Below are positions 2,777 through 27,385 of a stretch of 29,181 nt of DNA, in pieces (position 1 is the first letter of the stretch; the number at the start of each line of letters is the position of its first letter). The notes under the pieces are model-generated. The model was not told where the DNA came from and ran no database searches. It was given only the letters and a program-made list of their open reading frames with translations. This stretch comes from Chrysochromulina parva (Eukaryota > Haptophyta > Prymnesiales > Chrysochromulinaceae). A program made the translations under genes and the position numbers. The DNA lies in contig PJAB01000345.1 of assembly GCA_002887195.1 (NCBI GenBank), positions 1 through 29,181 of the forward strand. Reading direction: 5' to 3'.

Positions 2777-5700
2777 TCATTGCCGCAGCGTGACATAGGG
2801 CGGCTCGTCGTTGGCGCAGCGGCAGAAGCCGCATGGCACGATCGCCATCAGATCGGCTGGAGGGCGGAGAGTGCCCTCCTTCCCGCGGCACTGGTAGCAC
2901 GCAGAGGGCAGGTTGCAGTTGTTTGCACGGCCCGTGTCGCTTCCTAATTTGGCACGGCCCGTGTCGAGCGCGGCCGACTGGTTGTTCCAGAGCTGCTTGA
3001 ACTCGTGCGGCAGGTGGTCGATGGTCTTGGCGCACCTGATGAGGGGGTGGGGTGTCGGAGGCCATCAGACGCAATCAGCGGCCATTAGCGGCCATCAGCG
3101 GCCATCAGCGGCCATGAGCGCACTGGTAAGAGTAGACGTTCCACTCGGCCTGCTGGCTGAACCAGCACTGTGCATACTCGGGGTGTCGCGCCATGATGTC
3201 CCGTCGGTTGCGCGCAAATTGGGCACAGTTCCATGCAGTGTAGAGGCCAGTGAAGATCGGGTCGTGGCGCGCGCGCTGGTTGCCCGGGTGCTTGACCACA
3301 GAGTCGCCCGTGACGAAGTGGAACGTGAGCCGCGGCGAGAGCAGCGCCATCCGACAGCCCGCGTGCGCATGCAACGCCTGCATCAGGTCCGTTGCGATCA
3401 TTGAGACGCCCACCTGATGAGGGAGGCAATCAGCATGCCATCAGAGAGGCAATCGGCATGCCATCAGAGACGCCCACCTGATGGGGGCTCGCCATCATTC
3501 GCCACCAATCGTCATCAACCGTCATCAATCGCCATCACCATTGTGAAACCGAGTGAGAGCTGCGGCACCCAGCGGCGCGGGAAGGTCCAACAGTCGTGGC
3601 CTGGATGGGCGAGGCCCGTCCCACGCCATCCGAGAGCCTGCTCCACGCCGAAGGTGACAGGAGCGTGCTCGTACTCCTCTCTGATGAAGCTGATTGGAAT
3701 GTCGGGCATCAGCTGTGCCAACGGGTAGAACGGGTAGAACGGGTAGAACGGGTAGGGGGAGGGGCGAGAGGGAGGGGTAGAAAAGGGGGTGATGAGGAGG
3801 GAGGTAAACTCAGGAGCACACCCAAAGCACATCGGGAGCTCATCGGGAGCTCATCGGGAGCTCATCGGGAGCTCATCGGGAGCTCATCGGGAGCTCATCG
3901 GGAGCTCACCTGCAGCTGACGCGCGAGCTTGAGGTAGAAGGGCGCCTGCACGCCAATGTCGATGTTTGAGTACGTCAGGTGCTCTCCCTCGCCCTTGAGG
4001 TAGCCGGCGTACCTGATGAGGGAGGCAATCGGATGCAATCTCCTGAGGGGCGGCGTAACTGATGAGGGAGGCTGTTTGATGCGAGCGGCCAGCCGAGGCC
4101 ATCGGTGGCAGTCAGCAAGCAAACCACGTACAGGATCATGTTGAGGAAGGGAAGCTTGGCGTGATGACGGAAGCTCGGGAGCAGCGTCGCGACCGACACG
4201 TTGAGCAGCGCGACGGCGAAGCCCTGCTGTGCGCACTGCGGCAGCCGGGCAGCGTCTTCGGGGAACATGGCGCAGACCACATCGACGCGCACGCCCTGGG
4301 TGTTTGCGAGGGCGACGGCGTGCGAGATGGAGGCGATGGTGATCTCTTGCGCGCGCGCATGCTCGGCGTCGTGCTCGGAGTAGAACGGGTTGATCACGTG
4401 CGTGATCGAGATGTTCTGCGCGCGCCGCGGCGGCGCCGCACGCGCCGCCCACTCGGAGAACCAATGCTCAGCACGGCGCGGCGGCTCGGGCTGCAGCACG
4501 CGCACGACTGGCTGGCGGACGAATTCGTGGGTCCACGCGCCGCAGCAGCGTGGCGGCTCGGCGCTCGACTTTGCCTCGCGGAGTCGTGTCTCGATGAAGG
4601 TCTTGCGCACCTGGACAGAAGGAGGCGCGCCATCAGCGGCAATCAAGGGAGATTGCACCTCGTCCGACCAGGCGGAGTTAATCAAGGGAGATTGCACCTC
4701 GTCCGACCAGGCGGAGGTCGTGCCACCGTCCATCGGCGCTGTCGCATTGCTCTTCTTCTTGGGCTTCGCCTTGAGGGAGAGGGTGAAGGCGCGCTGTACC
4801 GAGCTGATGGGTACCTCAAGGAACTCGGCCAACGGCGCCGGGTACCTGAAGCAAGGGGGGCGCCGTGGTGGGCATGGGTGCCGTCAAGGCGCCGTGGTGG
4901 GCATATGCATGCCGTGGCGGGTACTTGAAGCAAGGGGGGCGCAATCAGCGGCCATCCGCGGCAATCGGCTGTCGTCAGTGGAACTCAGAGGCACTTAGAG
5001 ACACACAGAGGCACTCAGTGGCACACAGAGGCCGTCAGAGGCACTCAAAGGCACTCAGTGGCACTCAGAGGCCGTCAGAGGCCATCAGAGGCACCCAGTG
5101 GCACTCAGAGGCGCTCAGGTGCACTTCGGCGCACCGCTCAGGGCGCAGAAGCATGTCCGTGTAGTTGACGACGCGGTATTCCTCCGCGCGGAGCATCTGC
5201 AGCTGTGAATACATCTGGTCGAGCTGTGACAAGAAGAGGCTCACCTGTGGTTGGCGTAGTGCATGGCGCCGTGGTGAGCACATGCATGCCGACGCGTGTG
5301 CGCGCGCCGTGGTGGGCATGCGCATGCCGACGCGTGCGCGCGCTGTGACATGAGGCGAGGCGAGGCGAGGCGGCTCTCACCTGCTTGATATCATCAGAGG
5401 TCATCAGGGAGGTCATCAGATGTCATCAGCGAGGCGAGGCGGCTCTCACCTGCTTGATATCATCAGAGGTCATCAGGGAGGTCATCAGATGCCATCAGCG
5501 AGGCGAGGCGGCTCTCACCTGCTGGATATCATCAGAGGTCATCAGGGAGGTCATCAGATGCCATCAGCGAGGCGAGGCGGCTCTCACCTGCTGGATATCA
5601 TCAGAGGTCATCAGGGAGGTCATCAGATGTCATCAGCGAGGCGAGGCGGCTCTCACCTGCTGGATATCATCAGAGGTCATCAGGGAGGTCATCAGATGTC

Positions 5701-6941
5701 ATCAGCGAGGCAAGGCGGCTCTCACCTGCTGGATATCATCAGAGGTCATCAGGGAGGTCATCAGATGTCATCAGCGAGGCAAGGCGGCTCTCACCTGCTG
5801 GATATCATCAGATGTCATCAGCGAGGCGAAGGGAGGTCATCAGATGTCATCAGCGAGGCGAGGCGGCTCTCACCTGCTTGTGCAGCTTGAAGGTGCGGCC
5901 AGCTCGCCGCCAGATCTTTGGGAGCCCGCGGTTGTTCATCGACATGATCGCGTCGATCGGGTCGCGGTACAGCACGATCACCTTGAGCCGCACGCCGAGC
6001 AGGTCGCACATGTACACGATGTCCGCCAGGTCGGGGTAATGGGTTCCGTCCTCAGTCTCGTTCGACGAGCGAGAAAAGGGATACGAGAACATCTGACCTA
6101 CAGGCTGGAAGGAGCCGTTGGTGGATCGGCCGTCCAGCAGCTGGCCCGCCAGCTGCTGCTGCATCCCGCTGATCCACGAGCAGTGCCGCTGACGCGAGAT
6201 GCGGAAGCACGTGCGCGCGCAGAAGGCGGGGTGCTTGTGGTGCGAGTGGGCCTGGCGGACCCATTCGGCGAAGGCCTCGAGGGCGGACCAGAACGTGGCT
6301 GGGTCGTGGTGCTTCGGGTCCCACCAGAGCGACTGGAACACCTGCTCCTGCACCAGCGACATGGGCATCAGCTCGGGCAGCCGCATCATGAGCGCGGTGA
6401 TGAAGTGGTGGCCTGTGCCCTCGGCGCCGGCGACGAAGACGAGCTGCCGTTGGCTATCGCTGAGCGGCTTGCTGTGGTCGGCGGGCTGCTGGGGCTTCAC
6501 GTACGGCCGCCAGAAGGATGTGTCGAGCGGCGTCTCGATGGACGCGCGCCGCTTCACGACCTCGAGGAAGGCCTCCTGCTGCGCCTCGGCCGAAAGCCGC
6601 TGCGGAGGCGGAGGCGGAGGCGGGCTGCTGAGATCGGGCGGCGTTGGAAACCCGGTGGGCGAGAGGGAGGAGGAAAAGGAAGATGGTGATGATGAGGAGG
6701 AGGAGCTGATGTGGTCCACGGTTGGGAGCAGAAGCTCGTGCTGCAGCAGCACGCACGACAGCGCCGCTGCCGAGAGCGACGCGGTCGCGAGCATCATGAG
6801 CTTGACGACGCCGAGTGGCGCCTCGCACTCGCGATCGGCGCGACGGTCGTGACGGGCATGCTGGGCGGGGAGGAGGCGGCTGGAGGAGGCGGTGGAGGAG
6901 GTGGTGGTGGCGGTGGCGGCTGCGTCGGAGAGCGAGGGCAT
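2777..6941 (-). CDS. Sulfotransferase fused to glycosyltransferase-like domain
   Basis: Proposed model: exons 6941-5874, 5244-5135, 4845-4698, 4610-4132, 4012-3910, 3712-3539, 3413-3124 and 3035-2777 (2631 nt, 876 residues). All junctions are GT-AG and phases match. The N-terminus has a hydrophobic anchor at about 47-67 and then a Ser/Pro-rich stem, as in type II Golgi enzymes. Residues 168-182 (VFVAGAEGTGHHFIT) look like a 5'-phosphosulfate-binding loop and 322-334 (IVLYRDPIDAIMS) like the 3'-phosphate site of PAPS-dependent sulfotransferases. From about 508 a second domain starts (THVINPF), with TYSNIDIG near 615 and HPGHDC at 672-677. These resemble an uncharacterised GT-A-like family with a TNxDI motif (family from memory, moderate confidence). 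A sugar-modifying, sugar-sulfating Golgi enzyme is inferred. One exon links both halves. Confidence 0.7.
3036..3123 (-). repeat. Intron 7 of the sulfotransferase fusion (88 bp)
   Basis: Donor CA|GTGCGC, acceptor CATCAG|GTGCGC: the intron's first six bases are repeated exactly at the start of the next exon. The body contains repeats of CTGATGGCCG with a 10-bp period. Confidence 0.75.
3414..3538 (-). repeat. Intron 6 with duplicated acceptor
   Basis: 125 bp, donor ATG|GTGATG, acceptor CATCAG|GTGGGC. The acceptor with the following exon edge (sense CATCAGGTGGGCGTCTC) occurs twice, at 3403-3419 (used, it keeps the frame) and 3467-3483 (inside the intron). The body is CTGATGG/CTGATTG units. Confidence 0.7.
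3831..3907. repeat. 11-bp tandem repeat at an intron donor
   Basis: ATCGGGAGCTC occurs seven times at 11-bp steps (3831, 3842, 3853, 3864, 3875, 3886, 3897). The last copy on the plus strand carries the donor of intron 5 (sense CTGCAG|GTGAGCTCC), so each further unit repeats a donor-like GATGAGCTC. Intron 5 is 3713-3909 and ends after a pyrimidine-rich CCGTTCTAC repeat. Confidence 0.8.
4013..4131 (-). repeat. Intron 4 with GTACG at both ends
   Basis: 119 bp; donor CCT|GTACGTGG, acceptor CATCAG|GTACGCC. A second acceptor-like copy (sense CATCAGTTACGCCG) lies about 45 bp upstream in the sense direction, near 4052-4066. Splicing joins ...NMIL to YAGYLK in frame. Confidence 0.75.
4641..4716. repeat. 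39-bp tandem duplication across an exon/intron donor
   Basis: A 37-bp segment is perfectly repeated at 4641-4677 and 4680-4716 (period 39). In sense it reads CTCCGCCTGGTCGGACGAG, then GTGCAATCTCCC. The upstream copy supplies the proposed donor GACGAG|GTGCAATC of intron 3 (4611-4697, 87 bp, acceptor TGTCCAG|GTGCGC). Because 87 is a multiple of three and no stop occurs, the stretch could also be read through as 29 codons. Confidence 0.7.
4846..5134 (-). repeat. Intron 2 with 10-bp repeats
   Basis: 289 bp, donor GAGCG|GTGCGC, acceptor CTTCAG|GTACCC; phase 2, giving ...RPER-YPAPLAEF. The body is a 10-bp-period array (plus strand GGCACTCAGA, about 4978-5120). A near copy of the acceptor block (sense GCTTCAAGTACCCG) lies near 4920-4940. 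Confidence 0.75.
5376..5876. repeat. 69-bp unit array: eight copies of a splice donor
   Basis: The plus-strand octamer CTCACCTG occurs at 5376, 5445, 5514, 5583, 5652, 5721, 5790 and 5869: six steps of 69 bp and a last one of 79. In sense each unit contains CAG|GTGAGAGCCGCCTCG followed by CTGATGAC repeats and ends in GATATCMAGCAG|GTGAG. The copy at 5869 is the donor that closes exon 1 (AAGCAG|GTGAGAG). Intron 1 spans 5245-5873 (629 bp) and ends CCACAG|GTGAGCC. Reading into the intron from exon 1 meets a stop after a few codons, so the array is not coding in sense. Confidence 0.9.
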
Positions 6942-7187
6942 AGAGGCGGAGCCAAGTCGGTGTGAAGGGGTAGAAGAGATTTGTTGTGGGTGACCCCATT
7001 ATGTACACACGAGAGCACGATTTATGACTCCTCTGCTCAAGAGTCGCTCCGCACGAAGTGTGCGGTACCTTGCGCACGAAGTGTGGTGGCGAACCTTTGA
7101 TACCGAAGATGCTCGGCACCTGTTTGGGGTTCGCAAATTATCATGCGATTATATTTTGTTGATCGCAGCCTGTGGAGGATACTTTCC
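6942..7187. other. Divergent intergenic region
   Basis: Lies between the start of the sulfotransferase fusion (-) and tRNA-Glu (+). It contains a short hairpin (CCGCAC / GTGCGG, 7048-7064) whose CGCACGAAGTGTG core is repeated about 25 bp later. No TATA box that I would trust. Confidence 0.4.
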
Positions 7188-7260
7188 TTCCCTATAGTCT
7201 AGTTGGTTAGGATAACCCGCTTTCACCGGGTCGACCTGGGTTCGAGTCCCAGTGGGGAAA
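7188..7260 (+). tRNA. tRNA-Glu (anticodon UUC)
   Basis: A complete cloverleaf of 73 nt. The acceptor stem TTCCCTA pairs with TGGGGAA (one G-U), discriminator A. The anticodon arm is ACCCG-CTTTCAC-CGGGT with TTC at positions 34-36. The T arm is CTGGG-TTCGAGT-CCCAG. The internal promoters fit pol III consensus: A box TAGTCTAGTTGG and B box GGTTCGAGTCC. No CCA is encoded and there is no intron, as expected for a eukaryotic nuclear tRNA-Glu. Confidence 0.96.
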
Positions 7261-7279
7261 AACCCCCTCAACCTCAACG

Positions 7280-7283
7280 TTTT
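7280..7283 (+). terminator. Pol III T-run terminator
   Basis: TTTT 20 nt after the tRNA 3' end, the expected pol III stop. Confidence 0.7.
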
Positions 7284-7296
7284 CTCTCTTGCACCT

Positions 7297-7342
7297 GTCC
7301 GGATCTGACGACAGACGAGTCCCAGTGGGTCCGGATCCGACG
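7297..7342 (+). repeat. Echo of the tRNA 3' half between short direct repeats
   Basis: GTCCGGATCYGACG occurs at about 7297-7310 and 7329-7342. Between them, 7317-7330 repeats the tRNA's T-arm and acceptor sequence CGAGTCCCAGTGGG (7243-7256). A 3' tRNA fragment has been copied here. The rest of 7343-7619 is very GC-rich and holds no gene I can support. Confidence 0.55.
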
Positions 7343-7619
7343 TGCGAAATGACGCGCCCCGGGCGGCCTCCCCGCCCCCGCGCCCCGGGTGCGGGCGGGT
7401 GGGCCCCGCCCCCGCGTTGGGGTCGTTGCCGCGCGCGCGCGCCGCGGGGAACCATGCGGGGATGGGGGAACTCTTACTAAACCGGGCGGCGTGGGATCTT
7501 AGCATCTTTGACCCGTTCGATTACGATTTCGTCCTATAAGTATCACCAAAACAATGCGCAGCATGCGTGTATGGGGCACGGTAGCCGCGACGCCCCTCGT
7601 GTGTCCAGAGTCCACCTTC

Positions 7620-10600
7620 TCAACTGAGAGAAGTTTTCTCGAGCGCGCCGCTCAGCTTGCTTGTTGCCCCATCGGCGCCGTCGCGGGCGGCGCGCGCCGC
7701 GCCGAGCGCACTCGAGAGGTGGATGATCCACAAGTTACGTTCCTCCTCAGTCGGGGCGGCAAGCACGACGCCGCCGTCGGGCGCGCCGTCCCGAGCGGTG
7801 AGGCGGAACGCGTAGGGCAGATTGTCCGACGGAGGCTGCGACGACCAGTCATCAGAGGTCGTCAGAGGTCATCAAAGGTCATCAGAGGTCATCAGAGGTC
7901 ATCAGGGCAGATTGTCCGACGGAGGCTCTGGGGAAATGGGTGCTACGACCAGTGGGGCAGGGGAGGGGGCGCCCAGGACGACGCACGGTTGAGGCGCGCG
8001 TCAGCACAGATCAGAACGCGGCGCCGCCACGCGCGCTCGCGGCACTGTGGGGAGATCGGGGAGATCGATGGGAGATCGATGGGAGATCGATGGGGTAAGA
8101 GGGGGTCGCGTCGTCCCGGGCAGCGCACCGTGGCTTGCTCCACCCGATCGAAGCCCGAGAGCGGTACGATGCCGCGCGCGTGCTGCGGAGGGTCGTCGGC
8201 GTTCTGGTAGTACACGATCGTGCCCTCGTCGCGCAGGCGGAAGTGGCGAGCGACCCAATCCCGTGCCTGCCCTGTCTCCGCCTCGCTCCGCTGCGCAATG
8301 TGCACCTGATGAGGGAGGCAATCAGCATCCCATCAGAGAGGCAATCAGAGGTCATCCTGATCGAGCAGTCTCCGCCTCGCTCGCACTGATGAGGGACGCA
8401 ATCAGCATCCCATCAGAGATGCACTCGGCACCTTGGAGGCTCGCTTATAGAGGAGGCCGCTCAACTCGGCGCCTCGCGATGTGGCGTCCTCGGCCGTACT
8501 GGCGGAGCTACTCGGTACTTTGATGACCTCTGATTGCCTGGCATGAGTGGAAACTCCCCCGCCGGCGGTCGCGGCGGTCGCGACGGGCAGCGGCGAAGAG
8601 GGCGGCGCCACGGCGGACGAGGAAGCCGACAGCTGCGCGCCACAGGCGCAGAGGACGCGTATCCAGTCATCGCGTTCCCGCGCGGAGTCCGACGCGAGGT
8701 GGTACCTGATGAGGGAAGCCATCAGAGGTCATCAGAGGTTATCAAGAGGCAATCAGGTGAGCGGTGCCTGATGAGGGAAGCCATCAGGGAAGCCATTCCT
8801 CGGAGGTCACATCAGAGTCACCACTCGGCAGATCATCCGAGGTCATCCGAGGTCATCCGAGGCCATCCGAGGTCATCCGAGGTCATCAGGGGCCATGCGT
8901 ACGTCCGATTGCTCGTGTGCACCGCAAACGAATAGTGGCGGGCAAGCGAATTCTCTCCCTCGCCATGAGGCTGGATGATCAGTGGCGTGGGCCGCGCGCC
9001 GGCGCCATTGCTCATCACGGCGCTATGGCTCGTCTCGCGACCACCGTTGGTGCCGCCGCCGCCGCTGGTGTGCGCCACGGCCGCGCCCGCACCGCCGTGG
9101 TGAGCACTTGCATGCGCGGGAGCGGCCGCGCCCGCACCGCCGTCGGGTGCCGTGGCGCCATAGTGGGCGCCGTAGTGGGCGCCGCTGCTCAGCTCGGCGC
9201 CGCTGTCAGACTTGCCAAACGCCCTTACACTGGCTGACGGACTCGAGCCGCCGCTGATCGAGATGACGCCGAGAGAGAGGGGGCGGGGCGTCGTGGTGAG
9301 CACTTGCATGCAACGCACGCCATCAGTGGCACTCAACGCACCTGATCGAGATGACGCCGAGAGGCTGGAATGGGTTGGACATCTCGGCCGCGTAGTAGTA
9401 GAAGAGCTCGCCGTCGCACAGGCAAAAGTAACGCCTCTTCCAGGACGGGACCCGCCGCCCCTTTTTGTAGAGATGGCCCTGCGAACCGAGGCCACGGGAT
9501 GCGATGAGATGCATTGGGATGCGATGAGATACGCTGAGTGACCACTCCGGGGTCACTCAGGGTCACTCTGCCGTCACTCAGAGGCCACTCTCAGCCGTCA
9601 CTCTGCGGCCACTCTGAGGAGCTCTCAGCGGCACCCACCTGCTTGGTGCACACTCGATGGAGTGACTGGTGCAGCGCCGTCTCGTCTTCGCCGAAGTCGG
9701 CGCCGTGTTGGGCGTCTGCCTCCACAAAGTAGCAGAAGAGCGACGAGGCCGCCAGCGCCGGGATGGCCACGCACTGCTGCAGGTAGCGCTCGAGCGCCAC
9801 GCGTCGCTCCTCGACGAAACTCGGGTGAAGGTTGCCGAAGGCGCGCTTCGCTGGGAGGGCCTGCGGCACTAGCGGGCCGAACTCCTTGCGCAGCAGCTGG
9901 TCCAGCAGGTTGAAGTGCTTGTACCTGTGGGGAGAGGCGAGGGCGCCGTGGTGAGCGCGTGCATGCACGGCAGGCCATCAGCATGCAATCAACGTACCGT
10001 CGCTCGGAGCGAGAGAGGGCGCCGGGGTGAGCGCGTGCATGCACGGCAGGCCATCAGCATGCAATCAACGTACCGTCGCTCTGAGCGAGAGAGGGCGCCG
10101 GGGTGAGCGCGTGCATGCACGGCAGGACATCAGCATGCAATCAACGTACCGTCGCTCGGAGCGGAGCGTCGTCTGCACGCCGTGCACGAGCAGCACGGAG
10201 TCGACCAGGTACGTGACGTACTCGTTGCCATGCCCACCCTCGCGCTGACGCTGGGTACCGGCGAGGCGCACCGAGTGGAGCACGACGTCCTTCGATCGCG
10301 CACGCAGCTCGGTGCCCGTCGGCGACAAGGGCGGCCCTCGCCCATCGAGCGCTGTGGTGAGCGCCTCGTCGCCCGCGTGCATGCCCACACCGATCGTGAG
10401 CGCTGTGGTGAGCAGCCCGCCGCCGTGCTCACCACGGCGCGGGACGTGGGTCGGCTTACCGGTCGGCTTATAGAGCAGCTGCGTGACGCTGCGATCGCGG
10501 AAGCGGTGCGCCATCGCAAGGATCGAGTACTCGCCGTGCTGGTGGCAGAAGACGTGGCCGAGCTGCACGCACAGCGGCATCGTCGAGGCGTCGCCGTGGT

Positions 10601-11585
10601 GGTGAGGTAGCAGCAGCCGCAGCTGCGGCGGCAGCAGCAGCGAGGCAGAATGGTGCACGAGCAGCTCGTCGCGTGCGGGGATGTCCTGATGAGGGAAGTC
10701 ATTAGAGGTGCACTCAGCATGCAATCAGTCGCAATCAGGAGCAGCTCGTCGCGTGCGGGGATGTCCTGCACCACCAGGGGTCATCAGGGGTCATCAGGGG
10801 TCATCAGGGGTCATCAGAGGTCATCAGAGGTCATCAGGGGTCATCAGGGGTTGTCCTGCTCCACCATCCGTCCGCACCCGAGTCGATCAGCCGCAATCAG
10901 CCGCAATCAGGCGCAATTCGGCGCAATTCGGCGCAATCAGGCGCGCGATCGGGCGCAATCGGGCGCAATCGGGCGCAATCAGGCGCAATCAGGCGCAATC
11001 GGGCGCAATCAGCCGCACCTGGCTATACGAGTCCGGCGTGCGCGCGCCCACGCCGCCCAGATTGTACGGGTCCGACGTCGTGCGCGCCACGCTGTGGCTG
11101 CTCCCGGGCTTGCGCGCGCTGCCGACCCCGGGATCGCCCTCGCTGCCGCCGTCCTTGGCGCCGCCGCCCTTGGTGCCCTTGCCGCTCGCGTCACCGACCT
11201 CGGCTGCGGGCACCGCGTTGGCCTGCACCTGGATGCAGTTGTTCACGTTGCCCAGGTTGTCCAGCACTGTCGGTGCCGTGTGGTCGTGCCGCCACTGCCC
11301 GTCGATGATGAACTTGTACTGATGCGTCACTGGCGTCAGGTCGACGACTTTGTACCACTCTCCCTGCACCAGGGTGGAGTTGGCACTGGAGCTCGTCTGC
11401 CGCCACTGCATCGCGAGCTTCTGCCAGTGCGTGAACGAGCCGCAGATGTACGCCGTCTTGCCGCCGTGCGGCCAACGCAGGCACGTGGGCACCGTGCCCG
11501 GCCGCGGTTGCAAGGGCTGGCTCCCTCCCCCGTTCGTGCCTGGCACCGCCTCAGGTACCGACTCCTGGCTGACCTCGTTGCCCAT
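7620..11585 (-). CDS. AMPK-beta-like protein fused to PX and two PH domains
   Basis: Proposed model: exons 11585-11019, 10685-10150, 9924-9639, 9478-9342, 9253-8903, 8705-8432, 8305-8129 and 7835-7620 (2544 nt, 847 residues); all GT-AG and in frame. The N-terminus MGNEVSQES fits the N-myristoylation pattern (G2, S6), as in AMPK-beta. A glycogen-binding CBM48 domain follows at about 33-118 (WPHGGKTAYICGSFTHW, YKFIIDGQWRHD). The beta C-terminal interaction domain starts in exon 2 (DIPARDELL, LPPQL, PLCVQLGHVF, AMAHRFRDRSVTQLLYKP). Instead of ending there, the frame continues into a PX domain (RRYKHFNLLDQLL, FGNLHPSFVEERR). A PH domain (GHLYKKGRRVPSWKRRYF ... RERDDWIRVL) is split by an Ala/Gly/His-rich insert, and a second PH domain follows (GLLYKRASK ... 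ERNLWIIHL). Inferred: an energy-sensing kinase scaffold with phosphoinositide binding. A possible in-frame mini-intron follows LLYKPT (donor near 10463). Confidence 0.72.
7836..8128 (-). repeat. Intron 7 with duplicated 24-bp acceptor/exon block
   Basis: 293 bp. The block at 7814-7837 (exon edge plus acceptor) is repeated exactly at 7904-7927 inside the intron. Between the copies lies a 10-bp array (plus strand GGTCATCAGA, 7854-7903). A short extra exon inside (around 7990-8050) cannot be excluded. The direct join gives VEQAT-PPSDNLPYAF, which suits a PH domain. Confidence 0.65.
8306..8431 (-). repeat. Intron 6 with duplicated acceptor region
   Basis: 126 bp; donor AAG|GTGCCG, acceptor CATCAG|GTGCAC. 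A second CCTCATCAG with following sequence similar to the exon (GAGCGAGGCGGAGAC) lies inside, near 8368-8400. Confidence 0.7.
8519..8545. repeat. Reverse-orientation intron-repeat fragment inside an exon
   Basis: The plus strand reads TGATGACCTCTGATTGCC, so relative to the minus-strand gene the unit is antisense; all intronic copies are sense. It sits inside exon 6 and is translated as part of ARQSEVIKV. There is no GT donor on the sense strand next to it. Confidence 0.7.
8706..8902 (-). repeat. Intron 5, 10-bp array and repeated acceptor
   Basis: 197 bp; donor GGAC|GTACGC, acceptor CATCAG|GTACCA, so GTAC stands at both ends. A 10-bp array (plus strand GGTCATCCGA) covers about 8836-8890. The acceptor block GGTRCCTGATGAGGGAAGCC (plus strand) occurs at 8701 and 8763. 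Confidence 0.75.
9254..9363. repeat. 22-bp exon end duplicated at the 3' end of its intron
   Basis: 9342-9363 (end of exon 4) and 9254-9275 (end of intron 4) are identical over 22 bp. In sense both end in CGTCATCTCGATCAG. The first is followed by the donor GTGCGT, the second by exon 5 (CGGCGG). The 88-bp intron 9254-9341 equals one repeat period. Between the copies lies the motif GCATGCAAGTGCTCACCACG. Confidence 0.85.
9479..9638 (-). repeat. Intron 3 with GAGTGAC/GAGTGGC repeats
   Basis: 160 bp; donor AAGCAG|GTGGGT, acceptor TTCGCAG|GGCC. The body is made of GAGTGRC and GCATCTCATC units rather than the TGATGACCTC type. Confidence 0.65.
9925..10149 (-). repeat. Intron 2: three tandem copies of the donor region
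   Basis: 225 bp. The sense block with GAGCGACG|GTACGTTGATTGC and a following GCATGCACGCGCTCACC motif occurs three times, at roughly 72-80 bp spacing (plus-strand CAACGTACCGTCGCTC near 9990, 10062 and 10143). The acceptor is CCACAG|GTACAAG. GTAC stands at both ends, and the join gives SERR-YKHFNLL. Confidence 0.8.
10686..11018 (-). repeat. Intron 1: 28-bp acceptor duplication and two 10-bp arrays
   Basis: 333 bp; donor AGCCAG|GTGCGG, acceptor CATCAG|GACATC. A 28-bp block spanning the acceptor and exon 2 start (10661-10688) recurs exactly at 10741-10768. Two arrays with 10-bp period follow: plus strand GGTCATCAGG (10778-10848) and GCAATCAGGC/GCAATCGGGC (about 10890-11012). Confidence 0.85.
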
Positions 11586-13402: not shown

Positions 13403-14968
13403 TCAAAGTGTTGTGAACCATCCGCTCGACCTTAGGCTGGGTTTCCAGTTGGGTCGCCCTGCGGCTATGGGTGTGCGCGTGCTCGCCACCATGCTGGTCA
13501 CCACGAGCTTGGGCACGCCCTCCGGCTTCGCGCGGCCGGCGGCATCGTCCGTGACATCGGCCGTGACATCGGCCGCGGCGCCCGTGCCTGCAGCCTCACC
13601 TCTGCCAAAGTGCTCGTGCAGCTCGCCGGTGATCCAACGTCCGACGGCGCTCGGTACGGCGCTCGGTACGGCGCTCGGTACGGCGCTCGGTACGGCGCTC
13701 GGTACGGCGCTCGGTACGGCGCTCTGGCCGGTGATCCAACGTCCGACGGCTGCGCTGCTGCCCTGGCTCACGTCACGGTGCGCATTCGCGAGGGCTGTAT
13801 GCGCCGCCTCCTGCACCCTCGCGGCCGCGCGCCGGTCGACGAACCTCGCCTCGTAGTGCTCGTCGTGCAGCTCGCGCTTCGACGCCTCGAGACTCAGCCG
13901 CTGCATCCTATCCCTGGCCTCGAGGTGCGCGAGGCTCGTGCGCATCGCCGCGGCACCGAGCTTACGGGTGGCGAGGAGCTGGGCGTCGGCCCGCTGGCCG
14001 TTGAGCTGCCCGTCCTCGCCTCGCTGCTCTTCGAGGCTCTCCTGACGCTTCGCACGCACCGCCGCCAAAAAGGACTCCCGACGTGCAGAGCGCTCGGATG
14101 CCCAGCCCGATTTCGCATTCCGCACCAAGTCGGCGGTGGCTTGGCGGTTGCGGCAGAGGGCCTCGGCGGTGGCGAGGGCGGCCTCCGCTTTCGTCTCCTC
14201 GCGCACGCGGTCCACGCGCTGCCGGTTGCTCTCGATGGCCATCACCGCCGCCTCGCGCTCCGCCTCGAGCCTCTGCTCCCTGGCGAGCTTTACTTCGGTA
14301 GCGGCCTCGTGTCGCTCTGCGAGCATCTCCTCCCTGATCTCGCGAAGACGGCGCTGGTGCTCGAGCCGACCCTCACGCCCCGCGTGCGCCGCACCCATCG
14401 TGCGCCACTCGGCCCGCTGCTGGTCGAGCGCCGAAAGCAGTTCGTCGCGCAAGCCCTTGACACGCATGCCGCGCATCTGGTTCTCCTCGCGGTGCTGGCG
14501 CACTCGCGCGAGGACGCACTCGCGCTGCTCTCTCGAGCGCTGCGCGCGCTCGTACCCGGCCAACTGATGCGCCCCGCACATCACAGCACGCTGCTCGCGG
14601 CGTTGCGCGCTCTCCTGGCGCATGCGCTCGCCGATCTGGCGATTGTTGTCGATGTCGTTGAACTTGTTGAACTGCGCCCTGCTCACGTTCGAGCTGCGGT
14701 AGAGCGAAGCCTGTGAGATCACGGCCTCGAGCTCGTCGATCTCGTGCTTCTCCGCCTCGAAGAGCTCCGCGTCGGGCACGCCCACGTGCCCCCAGAATAG
14801 GCTCAGCAGCGAGTCCAGCGGAGTTGGCTGGTGCGGCTTGTTTGCGTCATCGGCCTTGATCATCTTGGACGGCTCCTTGAATTTGAGACTCTTCAACGGG
14901 CTGCTCGGCGGGTCGCGGCACTTGCTTCGCGGCGATTCGGCCTTGTTTTGGAGCCACCATAGGAACAT
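13403..14968 (-). CDS. Long coiled-coil protein, unknown function
   Basis: 521 residues from ATG 14968 (MFLWWLQNK); a second start at residue 36 (MIKADDANKPHQ) is a fair alternative because the first ATG is preceded immediately by an A/T-rich stretch. Residues from about 70 to 400 are almost continuous Arg/Glu/Gln/Ala-rich helix with many heptads (REQRLEAEREAAVMAI, RREQRAVM). Near 420-455 an in-frame 12-bp repeat encodes SAVP several times, flanked on both sides by VGRWITG. The C-terminus is basic and low-complexity. The protein resembles basal-body or axonemal coiled-coil proteins in composition only; no family assigned. Confidence 0.62.
   Translation of the reverse strand: MFLWWLQNKAESPRSKCRDPPSSPLKSLKFKEPSKMIKADDANKPHQPTPLDSLLSLFWGHVGVPDAELFEAEKHEIDELEAVISQASLYRSSNVSRAQFNKFNDIDNNRQIGERMRQESAQRREQRAVMCGAHQLAGYERAQRSREQRECVLARVRQHREENQMRGMRVKGLRDELLSALDQQRAEWRTMGAAHAGREGRLEHQRRLREIREEMLAERHEAATEVKLAREQRLEAEREAAVMAIESNRQRVDRVREETKAEAALATAEALCRNRQATADLVRNAKSGWASERSARRESFLAAVRAKRQESLEEQRGEDGQLNGQRADAQLLATRKLGAAAMRTSLAHLEARDRMQRLSLEASKRELHDEHYEARFVDRRAAARVQEAAHTALANAHRDVSQGSSAAVGRWITGQSAVPSAVPSAVPSAVPSAVPSAVPSAVGRWITGELHEHFGRGEAAGTGAAADVTADVTDDAAGRAKPEGVPKLVVTSMVASTRTPIAAGRPNWKPSLRSSGWFTTL
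13624..13752. repeat. 12-bp minisatellite flanked by a 24-bp duplication
   Basis: CTCGGTACGGCG is repeated six times in tandem (about 13650-13722). On both sides lies GCCGGTGATCCAACGTCCGA plus CGGC (13625-13648 and 13728-13751). The array is a multiple of three and lies within the coiled-coil gene, so length change would not shift the frame. Confidence 0.85.
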
Positions 14969-18170: not shown

Positions 18171-18275
18171 GGGGCCCCGTGCCAGGAGCAGCGAGCGGGC
18201 GATGAGTCTCTAAGCTCTAGTCTGAGACTAATTACTTTCGCAATCGAGAGTTCGATCAAAAGACACGTCAGAGAA

Positions 18276-19214: not shown

Positions 19215-19245
19215 ACGGCGCGGTGGCGGGCCATGAAAATTTATC

Positions 19246-21054: not shown

Positions 21055-21959
21055 TCATGCGACATAGCGCGACTCGCCCCTCGCGGCCCCACACGCCATC
21101 GCCAAGGTCACGAGCGCGAGCCCGAGCGCCTTTTTGTCGGTGAATCGCCCGCCCCCCTGATCTCCTTCCACCAGCCATTCGATCCGGGGATGTGCGCACC
21201 TTCGTTGAGCAAGCCCTGGACTCGGGACCGAGGCGTGGGCGGCCGAGCTCGCGATGGCGGCCGGGGCGCGCTCGGAGATCGACGTGCTGGATGCGCGCAT
21301 GGCATAAAGGGGAGAGGGTACCGGGACGCCGAGGGATCTGCGCACTGTGTGAGGTGCTCAGATACCGGCGTGCGGAGCGACCCCTTGCTGCTGTGGAGAC
21401 GGATGATCCTGCACTCCTCTCGCAGCCGTTGAGTCCGAAAGAGTCTCTCGCGTGTCTCCTCGCTTGCCGTATCCCAGAGCATCGTTGCAGATCTGCTCTC
21501 ATGCGAGTCCGGCATGCGGCGAGCGGCCGAGGCGTCGCCGAGCCGATACACCGCGCCGAACAACGCGAGAGACATGGGTGCGCGGGTCGCGAGGAGCTCA
21601 GCGGTCTCCTCGTCGACGTAAAATGCTGAGGCAGGGATAACCGCCCCCGCGACTTCGGCTCGCCGCCGCTCGATGAGCTCCAGACCTCGCGAGAGCGTTG
21701 CTCGTGTGACATCGGCTTTTCGGCACGCGAGGACGCTTGAGAGCATCGACGCTGAACCACTCCGCACGCCATTAGATGAGGATGCAGACAGCGAAGTCCA
21801 CGATGCGCTCGTTGTATATGAGCGGCGGACGGGCTTCTTGGCCTTCGGCTCTTCGGCGCCATCCTCATCGTTGTCGAGGGGTAAGAGGAACCCTCGCTCC
21901 CGCTCGAAGGCGAGCTCCTCGGGCTGCATGGCTTCGATGGGCCGCATTGTCGGTCGCAT
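21055..21959 (-). CDS. Hypothetical protein with possible C-terminal membrane anchor
   Basis: Not recognised. From ATG 21959 an open frame runs to 21108 (283 residues), but its last ~90 residues are Arg/Pro/Ser-rich and look out of frame. A two-exon model joining 21959-21415 to 21286-21055 (donor GAGGA|GTGCAG, acceptor CATCCAG|CACG, 128-bp intron) gives 258 residues. It ends with a hydrophobic stretch (KKALGLALVTLAMACGA) and the tail GESRYVA, which would suit a tail-anchored protein. Visible content of the first exon: an acidic, Lys-rich N-terminus (DNDEDGAEEPKAKK), a Ser-rich linker and a helical part (FYVDEETAELLATRAPMSLALFGAVYRL, written here in two halves: FYVDEETAELLA and TRAPMSLALFGAVYRL). 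The splice is my inference. Confidence 0.35.
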
Positions 21960-22721
21960 TCGGTCTGAACGTGCGCACGTTGCTTGCCACCATGGCGTGG
22001 TCGCCAGAAGGCGGCTCTATCATCGCATGATTTTTTTGCCGCCACCGCAGATTCGCAACTTGCAGGACGACGAAACCAACATGCGACGAAACCCCTTCGT
22101 CGCATGCTCGCCTTATGTCTGTGGTGGTTTCGCCGAGACTGCAAAGTTTTATGGAACGACGTCAATGCTATATGGTACGCGACTATATCCGACATATCCA
22201 TATCGTCCCGGTAAAAAGTCATAATACCCTAGAGAAGTACCGGGTAGACCGCAAACCGAGCCACCAGTTACTTACGGATCTGAAATCGAATGGACCGTCA
22301 CTCCGCGCGGACACCGCAAAAGCAGTGGTGCATCGCACCACTCTCCGAAGCCAAGGAGCAAGGTCAGCACGGACCCTTGACCCTACTCGTGCATGGAAAG
22401 AAGCCCGAGCGGCCGCACGAGAGCCCACTTGGCACGTCGTCGCATCGCGCCTCTCCACAGCTGCGCGCGAGGGCATCGAGCATGTCTCCGACGTGCAGCC
22501 GTCGCGCAAGAAGCCATTGGTGAGTGTACCAACGAGGGTGCGGACGATGCGAGCGAGCAACTCCTTTCACAGGGACTCCTTCACAGAGGCGAGCGAGCGA
22601 CTCCCTGGCCCGTCTCTGTGAAGGAATCGCTGTGAAGGAGTCCCTGTGAAAGGAGGTCCCTAGTCGCCGTCTGCCGCCGCACACCAGTGCGCCGCACGCG
22701 CGCACCTCTCACTCCTTCACG
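21960..22721. other. Intergenic region with a hairpin-forming inverted repeat
   Basis: 792 bp separate two minus-strand genes. The only structure is the inverted repeat at 22561-22655. No ORF has convincing composition. Confidence 0.5.
22561..22655. repeat. Perfect 26-bp inverted repeat
   Basis: The left arm 22561-22586 (CTCCTTTCACAGGGACTC + CTTCACAG) is the exact reverse complement of 22630-22655, with a 43-nt loop. The loop holds a third partial copy (CTGTGAAGGAATCG). It could be a hairpin in the 3' flank or a small inverted-repeat element; no target-site duplication is seen. Confidence 0.9.
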
Positions 22722-22777
22722 AATCACATGCAAATGGTGATGACGCCGCAATCACATGCAAATGGCGATGACGCCGC
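22722..22777. repeat. 28-bp tandem duplication across a stop codon
   Basis: Units 22722-22749 and 22750-22777 differ by one base. The second carries the last codons and the stop of the transporter gene, and the first repeats them (GVI.ICM-stop) in the 3' flank. Confidence 0.9.
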
Positions 22778-24242
22778 AGACGCCCACCCCAATCCCAAAC
22801 ACGAGCGTGATGGACGGGGCGACCAGTCGGCTCCGACCCTCGCCAGCGCGCAGCCGTAGCGCAAGCGCGCTGGGCATGACGAACATAATCAAAGTGCCTG
22901 TCGTCGCGCCAATGAGGGCAAACAGAGCACCAAGGTCGTTGACGGCACTCGCGACGCCAAAGCACAGGGCCGTGAGGAGCGCCGCGCTGACCCACCGATG
23001 CATAGCCGTCTCCGGCTGTCCAGGGCACACGCGGCCATGCAAGCCGACTCGCAGGCCGAAGAGATTCACTGGGAAGACGCACACCATCACGAGCGCCATC
23101 GCGCCCTGCACCGCCGCCACGAGCGAGGGCGGCAGCAGCGTCAGCCCCCGCTGGCTTGAAAGCGACACGAGGAGGTTCTTTTGGACTTCGCTTCCGAAGG
23201 CCACGGCACTTGCGAGCGCGACGGCTGTATAGAGCCCAAAGCAAGCACCGAGCGTCGCGCGTATCGCAACGAGCATCTTGGATGCCTTGGATGGCCACTT
23301 GCTCGGGCCAAGCGATGCATGCCGAAGCTCCCTGAACAGGAACGGCACGTTTTGGTGGAATTGGTACGCGAACGCGACGACCGGCGTGCTGCGCATCCAT
23401 GCGAGAGGCTCGAGTAGGAGCCATGGCAACGGCACCGGCAGCGTCTCAGCCGGCGGGCCAGTCGCGGCAGCGGCGCTGCCAGGCAGGGGCTCCGGCGGCT
23501 GTGACAGCTCTTTGGGATCCGGTGGCATCTCGTCTGCCCACAGACTGTTGCCGGCCACGGTACCAGCGCCGAGACCGATGGCTCTGCCGGAACTCCAAGC
23601 GGCTCGCAAGCCGGCGAAGACGATGGTGGTGACGATGACGCCCTGCAGGAGCACGGAGACGATCGAGGTGAGCTTGAGCCGCTCCATCGAGGGCAGCGAC
23701 GACAGCGGCACCAGCACCAGGACGCACAGCACAGCGAGGAGCGCTAGCGTAGGTGGCTCGTGCCAGCCGAGGAAGAGTAGGATGGGCGGCGTGAGCTGCT
23801 TGAGGACGACGAACGAGCCGATGAGCGCGCCAAGGCTGTACAGTGCAAGGACGAGCTCTGTGACCTGCCCAGCGGCGCTGCCGAAGGTAGAGGCCATGAT
23901 CTCGTAGAGCAGCGCCACGCCTGTCGATTCAGCACTCTCGGTCATAAACGCGGCCGTGCGCTCCGCGATGGCCGGCACAACGAGGAGGAGGAGCATTCCA
24001 CCCAAGATGCCGACCGAGGCAAACACGGACGGGATCGCGAGCACGCCGGTCCCAAGAGCCGTGCATAGAAGATTGAAGGTCACCACGCGTAGCTGTGCTG
24101 TTCCTTTCACCGGCAGAGGCGTTTGCTGATTGGCGGATGCTTCCTCAAAATGGGCCGACTTGTCCGGCTCGGTCGACGCGCGGAGCCGCTCGGTGACGCT
24201 GAGGAGCGCCTCTCGATTTTCTGCCAGACGCTGACGGTCCAT
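22752..24242 (-). CDS. Amino acid/auxin permease family (SLC38-like) transporter
   Basis: 496 residues, single exon, from ATG 24242 (MDRQRLAENREALL); the frame is open further upstream but the family domain starts near 53. The first helix region (TFNLLCTALGTGVLAIPSVF) is the typical AAAP/SLC38 signature, followed by about ten more hydrophobic segments, including WLLLEPLAWMRSTPVVAFAY and LVAAVQGAMALVMVCVFPVN. Residues FAYQFHQNVPFLFREL match the helix 6-7 region of SLC38 members. A Pro-rich loop (about 250-285) is inserted. Likely an H+ or Na+ coupled amino-acid transporter in the plasma membrane or vacuole; the substrate is unknown. Confidence 0.85.
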   Translation of the reverse strand: MDRQRLAENREALLSVTERLRASTEPDKSAHFEEASANQQTPLPVKGTAQLRVVTFNLLCTALGTGVLAIPSVFASVGILGGMLLLLVVPAIAERTAAFMTESAESTGVALLYEIMASTFGSAAGQVTELVLALYSLGALIGSFVVLKQLTPPILLFLGWHEPPTLALLAVLCVLVLVPLSSLPSMERLKLTSIVSVLLQGVIVTTIVFAGLRAAWSSGRAIGLGAGTVAGNSLWADEMPPDPKELSQPPEPLPGSAAAATGPPAETLPVPLPWLLLEPLAWMRSTPVVAFAYQFHQNVPFLFRELRHASLGPSKWPSKASKMLVAIRATLGACFGLYTAVALASAVAFGSEVQKNLLVSLSSQRGLTLLPPSLVAAVQGAMALVMVCVFPVNLFGLRVGLHGRVCPGQPETAMHRWVSAALLTALCFGVASAVNDLGALFALIGATTGTLIMFVMPSALALRLRAGEGRSRLVAPSITLVFGIGVGVCGVIAICM

Positions 24243-24839
24243 CTGAATGCTCACCGCGGTCAAGAGCGCGCCGAGACCACACTCCCGCGACGGACTAACA
24301 GCGTTTGGTCTCCTGCGGAATCGAAGCGTCGCAGCGTGAATGTGAATGTGGCAGAATGTGTGAAACATATCCCTCCCGCCGGTGTCTTTCAACCAGGGGG
24401 TACATGAAACCGGACGCATACCAGGGCATGCCGTGGGCCGGTCACATGACGTGGGCGGGACTAGGCTGACATGGCCTCACATGCCCGATCATGTCACATG
24501 GGATGGAATCGAGTCAATGAGAAGTCACCTTGCGCACTGCTCGCGCACGCTCGCGCACATCAGAATATCCGCGCATCTCACGCGAATGCTCACAGGAATG
24601 TGGACAATGCTGCTCTTGAGCGTTCGCATGGCCTTGCCGCATTACCGTCGGGGCGGTGCTGATGTTAATGGCCGCATTCCCGTCGGGGCGGTGCTGTGAA
24701 TGACGTGGCACTCACACTCACACTCTCGAGGGGGGAGGCGACACAGAGGCAAGCGCCGGCGAGCTCTGGCACCCGTGGCACCCGTGGCTGCTATCGCAGA
24801 GCTATCGCATAGCTATCGCATAGCTATCGCACCCGTGGC
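24243..24839. other. Intergenic region with small repeats
   Basis: GCCGCATTMCCGTCGGGGCG occurs at about 24636 and 24671. AGCTATCGCAT recurs at about 24800-24830, followed by ACCCGTGGCT copies. No gene is seen. Confidence 0.5.
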
Positions 24840-27385
24840 TCAGCCGAAGAACCCGCCGCCCTTTTTCTTGGACTTCTTCTCATTATCTAGAAGGGTGCGC
24901 GTCGACTGCCATGAGCCGGGTTCGCTGGCCGCACGCCCGACCGTGTACGAGCCGATCAGGACACCAGGTACCTGATGAGGGACGCAATCAGACGCGATCG
25001 GGGGCAATCAGACGCAATCAGAGGCGGCCAGAGACGATCAGAGAGGCAATCAGGACGGCGGGTACCTCGGACGGATCGGCGGGCCACTCGGGTGGCATTC
25101 ACAGAGGCATTCACAGAGGCATTCACAGAGGCATTCACGGCATTCACAGTACCTCGGACGGATCGGCGGGCCACTCGGGTGGCTGCTTGTGGAAGTCCTC
25201 GTGACGTAAGCCCTGGTAGGGGGCGCGTGCGTGCGACGCAAGAGGTCATCAGAGATGTCATCAGAGGTAATCAGAGGTCATCGGAGGTCATCGGAGGTCA
25301 TCCGAGGTCATCCGAGGTCATCGGAGGTCATCGGAGGTCATCCGAGGTCATCGGAGGTCATCGGAGGAAATTACCTGGAAGTAAGCACGTGCGAGGGGGT
25401 GCTCGGGCAGGTGCTCGGCACGGCGCGCCTCGAGGATCAATGTGATTCCAACCTCGATCGAAGGGAGGGAGGACCAAGCATAACTGCACAACAAAGGCAA
25501 CCCGTCATCATCAGTGCCCATCAGTGCTCATCAGTGCTCATCAGTGCTTATCAGTGCTCATCAGTGCTTATCAGTGGTCATCAGAGGCCATCACGGGCCA
25601 TCACAGAGGCAATCAGAGGCAATCAGAGGCAATCAGGCCCACCGGAACATCTGGTTACACAGAGGCGAGGCGAGGCGAGGCGAGGCAATCAGAGGCAATC
25701 AGATGCAATCAGATGCAATCAGAGGCAATCAGATGCAATCAGGCCTACCGGAACATCTGGTTACACAGAGGCGAGGCGGCGATGTCGAAGGCGATCTCCA
25801 CGTGATCGAACGTCTCCGGGAGCCCCGCGCCCGGTACAGCGCCCGGTGGCGCGGCGCGGTGCGGCAGTGTGGCCCGATTCACGCTGGCATGCACCTGCCG
25901 GCAGATGAGCATCGGGCGGCTGTCGTCGAGCCCCAGCCACGCGAGCGTTGCCCGTACCTAATGAGGGACGCAATCAGAGGTCATCAGAGGCAATCATGTC
26001 GTCGAGCCCCAGCCACGCGAGCGTTGCCCGTACCTAATGAGGGTGGTCATCACAGGCAATCAGAGGCCATCAGAGGCAATCACAGATGATCAGAGGCAAT
26101 CAGAGGCAATCAGAGGCGACGCACCAACTGGGGTCCGCTCCGAAGCGCGGCAAGGACCTTCAGCCGACTCACGGCAGTGGTGGCATCGCCATCCCACAGC
26201 TCACGCAGCAGCGCTGCCGATGGGCCCTCGGCCTCCGCAGGCGCCGTGTCGGACGCCGAGTGGATCATCAACACATTGTACGGCGCGTTGCTCGAGTGCC
26301 TCGGGTTCATAAAGTGGAGGGAGAGTACGAAGCGCGCCGAGCGCGGCGGCACTATGACCCCTGCTTGCAGCAGCGTGGCCGAAGCGCCGGCGAGATGCTC
26401 GCCGTTGAGTTCGAACGTCTGTGCGCCGAAGAAGTCGCACAGCGGAGTGCCGGCTGCCGCGATCTTCTTGCCATCTTCGAAGTAGGCAGGGCCCCGCACC
26501 TGCATGCAATGAGCACAGAGACGATCAATGTCAATCCAAGGTCATCAATCGTCATCAATCGTCATCAATCGTCATCAATCGTCATCAGTGTCAATCCAAG
26601 GTCATCAATCGTCATCCATCGTCATCAACCGGCATCAACCGTCGTCAACCGTTATCTGCCATCATCAATCGTCAGCAACCGTCATCAGTGCCAATCAACG
26701 GGCCTACTCACGGGTGGCGCGTCCGTCGGTTGATGAACCACGCTCGGAGCCAGTAGGTAGGCTGAGGTCGAACGTGCGCTGTCGTGGGCACCGGGCTCGT
26801 CCATTGTGTGTGACGCCGCGGTCGCCCCGTCCACAGCCCCGTCCGCTGCTTCGGTCGCCTCCTCGCCCGCCGTCTCCTCGGCATCGTGATAACACTCCTG
26901 TCGGGCACCCCACCGGTGCAGGTCAGTCAGTCTCAGTCGGTGCCCATGGGAGTCCGTCAAAGTCAATCAGGGCTCTTCACAGCCAGTCTCAGTTCACAGC
27001 CAGTCTCAGTTCACAGCCAGTCTCAGTCAGTGCCCATTAGAGTCCATCAGGGCTCATCAGAGGCAATCATCTCACCTTGCTCTCCATCGACTCCTCATCA
27101 GAGGCAATCAGGGCTCATCAGAGGCCATCATCTCACCTTGCTCTCCATCGACTCCTCGTCTTCGCTTTCGGCAGGCGAAACTAACGCGGAGCTCCGGTGC
27201 GAGTGCGCCGTCGTGGGCGATTGGGGAGGCGCCGTCGTGGGCGATTGGGGAGGCGCCGTCGTGGGCGATTGGGGAGGCGCCGTCGTGGGCGATGGGGGAG
27301 GCGCCGTCGTGGGCGATTGGGGAGGCGGAGTACTCCATGGCACAGGCCCGGGCATAGCTTCGCCTGCCTTATATGGCAGTGCCGC

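What the first reader, a model, noticed from the sequence alone, without database searches (positions are those of the whole stretch)
3414..27157. Splice junctions tandemly duplicated inside about 15 of 20 introns
Segments crossing an exon/intron border recur inside the same intron. Donor side: 5376-5876 (eight copies), 4641-4716, 9925-10149 (three copies), 25641/25747, 25062/25149, 27061/27122. Acceptor side: 3403/3467, 4007/4052, 4841/4920, 10661/10741, 8701/8763, 8274/8368, 7814/7904, 25921/25997. One intron (9254-9363) carries a duplicated exon end at its 3' edge. Many copies are perfect over 22-47 bp. This looks like ongoing replication slippage or duplication biased to splice junctions, producing decoy splice sites and possibly new introns.
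Basis: seen in the sequence. Interest (0 to 1): 0.85.

Follow-up and report, generated by a model that had tools for sequence, protein, structure and literature searches.

The report
Introns built from duplicated exon edges
In an unnamed alga, probably a haptophyte, many introns are bracketed by long copies of the neighbouring exon edge, as if a short splice-signal segment had been inserted with a large target duplication, often at an existing splice junction, which gives a testable picture of how new introns are born and grow.

Summary
With exon borders set by related proteins (genes A, B) or an open frame (gene C), 14 of 20 window introns carry a junction-crossing repeat (11+ nt, 6+ exonic), against 13 of 380 swapped-intron controls. 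The genome is a 45 Mb eukaryote, probably a haptophyte. Two short modules recur there: CTGATTGCNTCCCTCATCAG (1,884 copies at one mismatch or fewer) and GTGCTCACCACGGCGCC (513 exact copies); reversed controls give 0. Without any gene model, 29 of 63 module copies are followed, right after the acceptor AG, by a stretch (10 to 45+ nt) that also occurs within 250 nt upstream (controls 7 of 2,292). Such introns read [copy of the downstream exon start] + [branch site and acceptor module]. Arp2 and pyruvate carboxylase align across two introns bracketed by such repeats. Some window junction copies fit the same event at an existing junction; others (8 x 69 bp, 3 x 76 bp) are tandem amplifications. I read this as introner-like intron gain with long, variable target duplications; slippage aimed at junctions is not required, though tandem copying clearly contributes. 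No RNA or empty-site alleles were available.

The parts
5245..5873 (-). Gene A intron 1 (629 bp) with a 69-bp unit repeated about 7.4 times (8 donor copies CAG|GTGAGAG); units start with GT and end with AG
4846..5134 (-). Gene A intron 2; acceptor junction copied (4839-4863 / 4918-4942); module-2-like core present
4611..4697 (-). Gene A intron 3 (87 bp, in frame); donor junction copied (4641-4677 / 4680-4716, 37/37); the 29 residues it would add are absent from the 8 aligned related proteins
4013..4131 (-). Gene A intron 4; acceptor junction copied (4005-4026 / 4051-4072); module-1 end
3414..3538 (-). Gene A intron 6; 11-nt copy of the exon start with module 1 after it, next to an inner acceptor (3403-3423 / 3467-3487)
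10686..11018 (-). Gene B intron 1; 27-nt exact copy of the exon start with module 1 after it, next to an unlike inner acceptor (10659-10688 / 10739-10768)
9925..10149 (-). Gene B intron 2; three copies of a 76-bp unit crossing the donor, with module-2 core; outermost sites give the PX motif SERRYKHF
9254..9341 (-). Gene B intron 4 (88 bp) bracketed by a 22-nt direct repeat with period equal to intron length (9254-9275 / 9342-9363); module-2 core inside
8306..8431 (-). Gene B intron 6; exon stretch copied (8274-8288 / 8368-8382); module 1 twice
7836..8128 (-). Gene B intron 7; 22-nt exact exon copy plus filler next to an unlike inner acceptor (7814-7837 / 7904-7927)
26898..27136 (-). Gene C intron 1; tandem 61-bp duplication across the donor (27035-27096 / 27096-27157)
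25958..26124 (-). Gene C intron 3; 37-nt exon copy with module 1 after it, at an inner acceptor that shares 10 intron bases (25921-25967 / 25997-26043, 47/47)
25484..25748 (-). Gene C intron 4; tandem 106-bp duplication across the donor (25604-25672 / 25710-25778)
24972..25152 (-). Gene C intron 6; 35-nt copy of the exon end plus GTAC, 52 nt of mostly 12-bp repeats between the copies (25062-25096 / 25149-25183)
9078..9141 (-). Exonic, in-frame stretch with module-2 core between 19-nt direct repeats (period 45, no acceptor AG at the border); here the 12 aligned related proteins are gapped or much shorter

Best explanation
These are introner-like introns with unusually long target duplications. 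A short segment that carries a branch site and acceptor (module 1: ...CTGATTGCNTCCCTCATCAG; module 2: GCATGCAAGTGCTCACCACGGCGCC...CCCCACAG) enters an exon so that 10 to 45 or more nt of exon end up on both sides. Where the exon copy begins with GT it supplies the donor, so splicing removes [exon copy + module] and restores the message. The mirror form copies the exon end as the acceptor. Because such a junction reads AG|GT, a further unit added there is also spliceable, so introns grow by accretion and by unequal exchange between the direct repeats. That produces the duplicated junctions seen. Shown here: the anatomy, its excess over controls, and near-contiguous protein across several such introns. 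Inferred: that the modules move, that a staggered break or similar makes the repeat, and the order of events.
For: Modules are dispersed: 1,884 and 513 copies, reversed controls 0. Right after the module's AG, 22 of 49 module-1 copies (up to 3 mismatches) and 7 of 14 module-2 copies (up to 5) have a downstream stretch repeated upstream at score 10 or more; controls 5 of 2,142 and 2 of 150; in the random 200 kb, 3 of 5 and 2 of 3. Of 104 introns (20 window, 84 predicted), 15 have right-hand repeats scoring 8 or more, shuffles 0.2% or less; random sample 4 of 19. Arp2 aligns without gap at a 29-nt repeat, pyruvate carboxylase with one extra residue beside a 35-nt repeat; Pfam domains span borders in 3 of 4 further proteins given. 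29 of the 100 listed exact module-1 places (461 in all) have a same-strand neighbour within 150 bp, 0.15% expected, none on the opposite strand. An in-frame exonic stretch with the module-2 core has a 19-nt direct repeat although not spliced in my model.
Against: No empty-site allele, strain comparison or RNA was available, so gain is inferred. At two mismatches or fewer, all 45 module-1 copies scored lie in sense in introns (44) or an exon (1) of predicted genes, none between genes or antisense, which also fits a functional 3' splice consensus kept by selection. 34 of 63 module copies show no bracket. The 29 bracketed copies come from 15 sequences, 7 of them from one locus (L008), so they are not all independent. 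Within the window no intron has a right-hand match above 6. The modules are only about 40-60 bp with no known mover; five RVT_1 matches just over the cut-off say little. Several window cases are plain tandem duplications. Models outside the window come from a small home-made gene finder that erred in places (GC donors, tiny exons, the 87-bp intron read as exon).
Confidence: 0.58

Rival explanations
1. General local tandem duplication (slippage or fill-in repair) plus selection. Duplications arise everywhere; those in exons survive only in multiples of three, those over AG|GT junctions survive because either copy can be spliced, as in the Rogers tandem-duplication model. Filler then grows by slippage of 10-bp repeats.
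For: Random sample: exon duplications 21 of 22 divisible by 3, outside exons and introns 6 of 12, intron-linked 1 of 3; window intron-linked 3 of 12. Window A1, A2, A3, B2, C1, C4 are near-complete tandem copies. Related cases exist in potato (PMC4974935) and fission yeast (PMC3629103).
Against: Exon copies are often exact while the rest of the unit is unlike the exon and matches a dispersed module. Per kb, intron-linked duplications exceed those outside genes (1.40 vs 0.26 in the random sample, but only 3 events).
Confidence: 0.27
2. Introner families moved by a DNA transposase with a fixed short target duplication (about 4 bp), the longer repeats being later events.
For: Donor and exon starts match beyond shuffles at +3 and +4 in the 20 window introns (p 0.004 and 0.013, not corrected for 26 offsets). 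Chrysochromulina introners with 4-bp duplications are described (PMC9860276).
Against: Terminal inverted repeats were not searched for.
Confidence: 0.08
3. Regulated decoy splice sites kept for alternative splicing.
For: Internal copies of donors and acceptors are often intact; inclusion could add a few residues (18 nt in C1 by my gene finder).
Against: Copy lengths and positions differ from intron to intron; the inner A2 copy has lost its AG and the inner A4 copy its GT; in A and B the outermost sites match related proteins, though other site choices were not aligned.
Confidence: 0.04
4. Assembly artefact.
For: 2,199 contigs, unknown read type; long arrays such as 8 x 69 bp are assembly-prone.
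Against: The same anatomy recurs at unrelated loci with different exon sequence, some copies diverged, in register with splice sites, and coding frames are restored.
Confidence: 0.03

Closest known systems
Introners / introner-like elements (survey PMC9860276; passages read, supplements not seen)
   Same: Similar intron segments dispersed in many copies; one splice site carried, the other taken from a duplicated target; splicing restores the message; introners reported in Chrysochromulina sp., a haptophyte (recalled).
   Different: The passages cite 3-9 bp repeats for earlier families and show 4 bp for Chrysochromulina, which carries the 5' site and takes the 3' site. Here the module carries the 3' site and the duplicated stretch is 10 to 45+ nt and variable.
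Daphnia pulex neointrons from staggered breaks (PMC4202315; passages read)
   Same: [quoted passage not shown] repeated staggered events inside young introns.
   Different: Daphnia repeats are 4-12 bp; here 10 to 45+ nt, and the filler often belongs to dispersed module families.
Intron gain by tandem duplication (potato RdRp, PMC4974935; fission yeast, PMC3629103; review PMC3443670; passages read; ATP2A1 as cited there)
   Same: Duplicated segment crosses an intron/exon border or holds AGGT; new intron removed by splicing.
   Different: Single or few cases in these two reports; many loci here, and often copy + module rather than a pure tandem copy.
Dual-specific AGGT splice sites in tandem repeats (PMC10809524; abstract and outline read)
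   Same: AG|GT between repeat units can act as donor or acceptor, which fits the A1 array.
   Different: Coding ubiquitin units there; units inside introns here.
Direct repeats near intron borders (PMC11782384; abstract and outline read)
   Same: Reports repeats of 4-30 bp (mean 11.4) near borders of each of 213 introns and reads them as insertion marks.
   Different: Repeats at or near borders there; here register with both splice sites, a module, and swap or shuffle controls.
Amoebophrya introner elements (PMC7789003; passages read)
   Same: Repeated introns with direct repeats over exon/intron borders.
   Different: 3-5 nt direct repeats, inverted repeats and non-canonical sites there; GT-AG here.

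Membership tests
Introner (dispersed intron-making element) | Similar sequence shared by introns at many unrelated positions | tested here: met
   Modules 1,884 and 513 copies, controls 0; shared 12-mers in up to 23 of 104 introns. The shared part is short (20-25 nt cores and 10-bp repeats), not a full-length element, and genome-wide copies were not each checked to be introns.
Introner (dispersed intron-making element) | Recent gain: intron-less orthologous site in a close relative | not testable with these tools
   No relative's DNA was available; related proteins show only where splicing must occur.
DNA-transposon introner | Target duplication of fixed short length | tested here: not met
   29 bracketed module copies: repeat length 10 to 45 (capped at 45), median 27. 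A separate +3/+4 match signal exists.
DNA-transposon introner | Terminal inverted repeats | not tested
   No search of module ends was made.
Tandem-duplication intron gain (Rogers type) | Intron equals a duplicated exon segment holding AG|GT | tested here: inconclusive
   Repeats span both sides of the junction in L035 3764-3846, L015 1171-1284 and L016 2065-2114, and A3 is a tandem copy; but bracketed introns printed also hold filler that is not exon copy.
Staggered-break (Daphnia type) intron gain | Exon-end direct repeat at the opposite intron end, plus filler | tested here: met
   Score 8 or more: 15 of 104 right type, 9 of 104 left type, 21 in the union; longer than the 4-12 bp of PMC4202315.
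Staggered-break (Daphnia type) intron gain | Break-repair origin of the insert | not testable with these tools
   Needs polymorphism or experiment.

The most novel reading that the evidence does not exclude
This alga gains introns through a process not described in the papers seen here: a short, gene-restricted 3' splice module is copied into exons with a target duplication of 10 to 45 or more nt, perhaps by reverse transcription of excised introns or by long-overhang fill-in. Existing splice junctions are favoured landing sites, so introns are built as chains of separately spliceable units.
Probability: 0.3. Interest if true: 0.85.

Novelty: new variant of a known kind. Interest (0 to 1): 0.68.

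Why it matters
Where new introns come from is a long-standing question with few cases in which insert and footprint can both be read. If this reading holds, one genome may offer hundreds of intron births with donor source, module and target duplication visible, plus a simple reason why introns grow at their edges: units added at AG|GT cost little. Strain comparison could then measure gain rates and decide between transposition, RNA copying and break repair.

Tried and rejected
GC donors proposed by the first gene finder (13 of 45) were rejected: all 20 outermost window introns are GT-AG. A fixed 4-bp target duplication was tested; a weak +3/+4 signal remains, but long variable repeats dominate among bracketed copies. 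SSU rRNA search to name the organism failed twice on the machine; the haptophyte label rests on named proteins among the hits (Haptolina, and taxid 221442 = Coccolithus braarudii; Prymnesium, Calcidiscus; Emiliania); a diatom also appears lower. A viral source for the modules: 14 viral stretches hold the GC-rich 17-mer, taken as chance without a control and not looked into, and 0 hold the module-1 21-mer. Reverse transcriptase: 5 matches just over the cut-off, not informative. Models with very short exons between junction copies were set aside for outermost splicing. One search listed the 84-bp period in L028 and the 39-bp period in the window as exonic; the L028 stretch holds module 2 and the window copy lies in an intron, so a few 'exon' duplications may be in-frame introns, which inflates the multiple-of-three count.
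Full report
Setting. The window is a whole 29,181-bp contig (C345) of a 45.07 Mb assembly of 2,199 contigs. Named protein relatives among the hits are haptophytes (Haptolina and Coccolithus braarudii; Prymnesium parvum, Calcidiscus leptoporus; Emiliania huxleyi), with a diatom lower. The finding covers three minus-strand genes: A, a sulfotransferase-like protein (weak Pfam matches below cut-off; a relative is named so); B, an AMPK-beta-like protein with PX and PH domains; C, an EDR2_C protein.

Fixing the introns. B was aligned with 12 of 21 related proteins and A with 8 of 14. Where the aligned proteins reach, they run without gaps over the outermost junctions, for example SERRYKHF at B intron 2. 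Exceptions: the right side of B intron 4 is little conserved; B intron 7 was retained in the aligned model and redrawn afterwards; two of eight proteins are uninformative at A intron 7. An 87-bp in-frame stretch of A is absent from all eight and is read as an intron. C rests on an open frame and a domain hit only. This gives 20 introns, all GT-AG.

Observation. 14 of 20 introns hold a repeat of 11+ nt that carries 6+ exon nt in one copy; giving each pair of flanks another intron yields 13 of 380. Exon flank alone inside its own intron: 11 of 40 junctions, other introns 3 of 760, sequence 60-100 nt away 0 of 40.

Is it junction bias? Local duplications (15+ nt, 16-300 bp apart) were listed in the window plus 200 kb. 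In the random part, 22 lie in exons (152.1 kb; 21 with period divisible by 3), 12 outside exons and introns or at their edge (45.8 kb; 6), 3 touch introns (2.1 kb; 1). In the window 5, 4 and 12 (5, 1 and 3 divisible by 3; 17.2, 8.2 and 3.7 kb). So exons keep mainly frame-preserving copies, and intron-linked copies are free of that filter and denser than those outside genes. The random intron count of 3 is small, and a few 'exon' cases may be in-frame introns.

Register with both splice sites. For 104 introns (20 window, 84 predicted in held loci, duplicates removed) I compared the sequence around the donor with that around the acceptor. The intron start matches the downstream exon start at score 8 or more in 15 (6 of 43 with module 1, 9 of 61 without); shuffled pairs reach that in 0.2% or less. 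The mirror match, upstream exon end against intron end, reaches 8 or more in 9, all among the 61 without module 1 (shuffles 0.8% at 6 or more), three shared, 21 in all. In the random sample the right-hand count is 4 of 19. In the window itself the right-hand match is 6 at most and the left-hand one is B4 (22 nt); a match at +3/+4 exceeds shuffles, uncorrected for 26 offsets.

The modules. Intron 3' ends share CTGATTGCNTCCCTCATCAG: 1,884 matches at one mismatch or fewer, 461 exact with GT after it, reversed controls 0. A second core, GTGCTCACCACGGCGCC, has 513 exact copies, control 0. Taking module copies alone, with no gene model (up to 3 and 5 mismatches; 63 copies in 18 sequences), 22 of 49 and 7 of 14 have a downstream stretch, starting at the first base after AG, that recurs within 250 nt upstream at score 10 or more; controls, the same stretch against other sequences, 5 of 2,142 and 2 of 150; random sample 3 of 5 and 2 of 3. 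Overlapping loci L001, L011, L013, L014, L044 and L048 were dropped before these counts. The 29 come from 15 sequences, seven from L008, so they are not all independent.

Protein check outside the window. Of 12 loci modelled, six proteins were tested. Splicing at repeat borders gives contiguous protein in Arp2 (L040, 29-nt repeat; alignment to 6yw6 without gap at the border) and nearly so in pyruvate carboxylase (L015, 35-nt repeat; one extra residue beside the border). Pfam domains span the borders in a GH3/Fn3-like protein (L012), a poly(A)-polymerase-like protein (L023) and a cation-efflux protein (L004); the L035 piece given stops short of its intron and had no hit. Other stretches of the Arp2 and carboxylase models carry small errors beside further junction copies.

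Reading of the window. In B1 and B7 the inner and outer acceptors share only 3 and 2 intron bases while the exon copy is exact over 27 and 22 nt: this fits a unit [exon copy + module or filler] added after an existing acceptor. A6 (6 shared) and C3 (10 shared) can be read either way. C6 has a 35-nt copy of the exon end plus GTAC with 52 nt of mostly 12-bp repeats between, an insert at an existing donor. B4 is a free-standing case (22-nt repeat, period 88 = intron length 88, module-2 core). A1, A2, A3, B2, C1 and C4 are near-complete tandem copies, as expected if direct repeats recombine or if tandem duplication is the main process. Units that begin with GT and end with AG can be removed whole or one by one, so copy number would be nearly free (inference).

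Exonic case. At 9078-9141 a 19-nt direct repeat (period 45, in frame) brackets the module-2 core without an acceptor, where the 12 aligned relatives are gapped or much shorter. If it is an insertion, the repeat does not depend on splicing.

Clustering. Of the 100 exact module-1 places listed (461 in all), 29 have a same-strand neighbour within 150 bp (spacings 41-97), none on the opposite strand; scatter would give 0.15%.

Limits. No RNA, no second strain, one small sample (20 stretches of 10 kb, all from the 59 largest contigs), home-made gene models. Module 1 at two mismatches or fewer was seen only in sense within predicted genes (45 of 45, most from loci chosen for it), so it may in part be a preserved splice consensus. 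Mechanism beyond the anatomy is inference.

Literature. Papers were searched. The closest are introners (PMC9860276), Amoebophrya introners (PMC7789003), Daphnia neointrons (PMC4202315), tandem-duplication gain (PMC4974935, PMC3629103, PMC3443670), dual-specific sites (PMC10809524) and direct repeats at introns (PMC11782384); only passages or abstracts were read. What I saw of them does not report introner modules with variable 10-45 nt target duplications; supplementary files were not seen, so this is no proof of absence from print.

Noticed in passing
window 7620-11585 (-): Gene B joins an AMPK-beta glycogen-binding domain (and a sub-threshold AMPKBI match) to PX and PH domains; relatives in Prymnesium parvum and Calcidiscus share AMPK1_CBM, PX and PH, a fusion worth a look of its own.
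   Followed up: partly
window 9078-9141 and 10347-10413: In-frame repeats with module-2-like sequence (the second by eye) inside gene B exons, in stretches gapped or shorter in aligned related proteins.
   Followed up: partly
window 143-282: Perfect 75-bp tandem duplication near the contig start, in sequence called non-coding by my gene finder.
   Followed up: no
window 27205-27327 and 13644-13724: Coding tandem repeats of 24 bp (5.1 copies) and 12 bp (6.8 copies), periods divisible by 3.
   Followed up: no
window 7188-7260 (+): A tRNA gene between genes A and B (Rfam RF00005).
   Followed up: no
L003 1170-1305: A 136-bp predicted intron made of two identical 68-bp units, each starting with GT and ending with AG.
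   Followed up: partly
genome G000: The window is intron-rich for its genome: 20 introns in 29 kb against 19 predicted in 200 kb of other stretches; why some genes are so rich is open.
   Followed up: no
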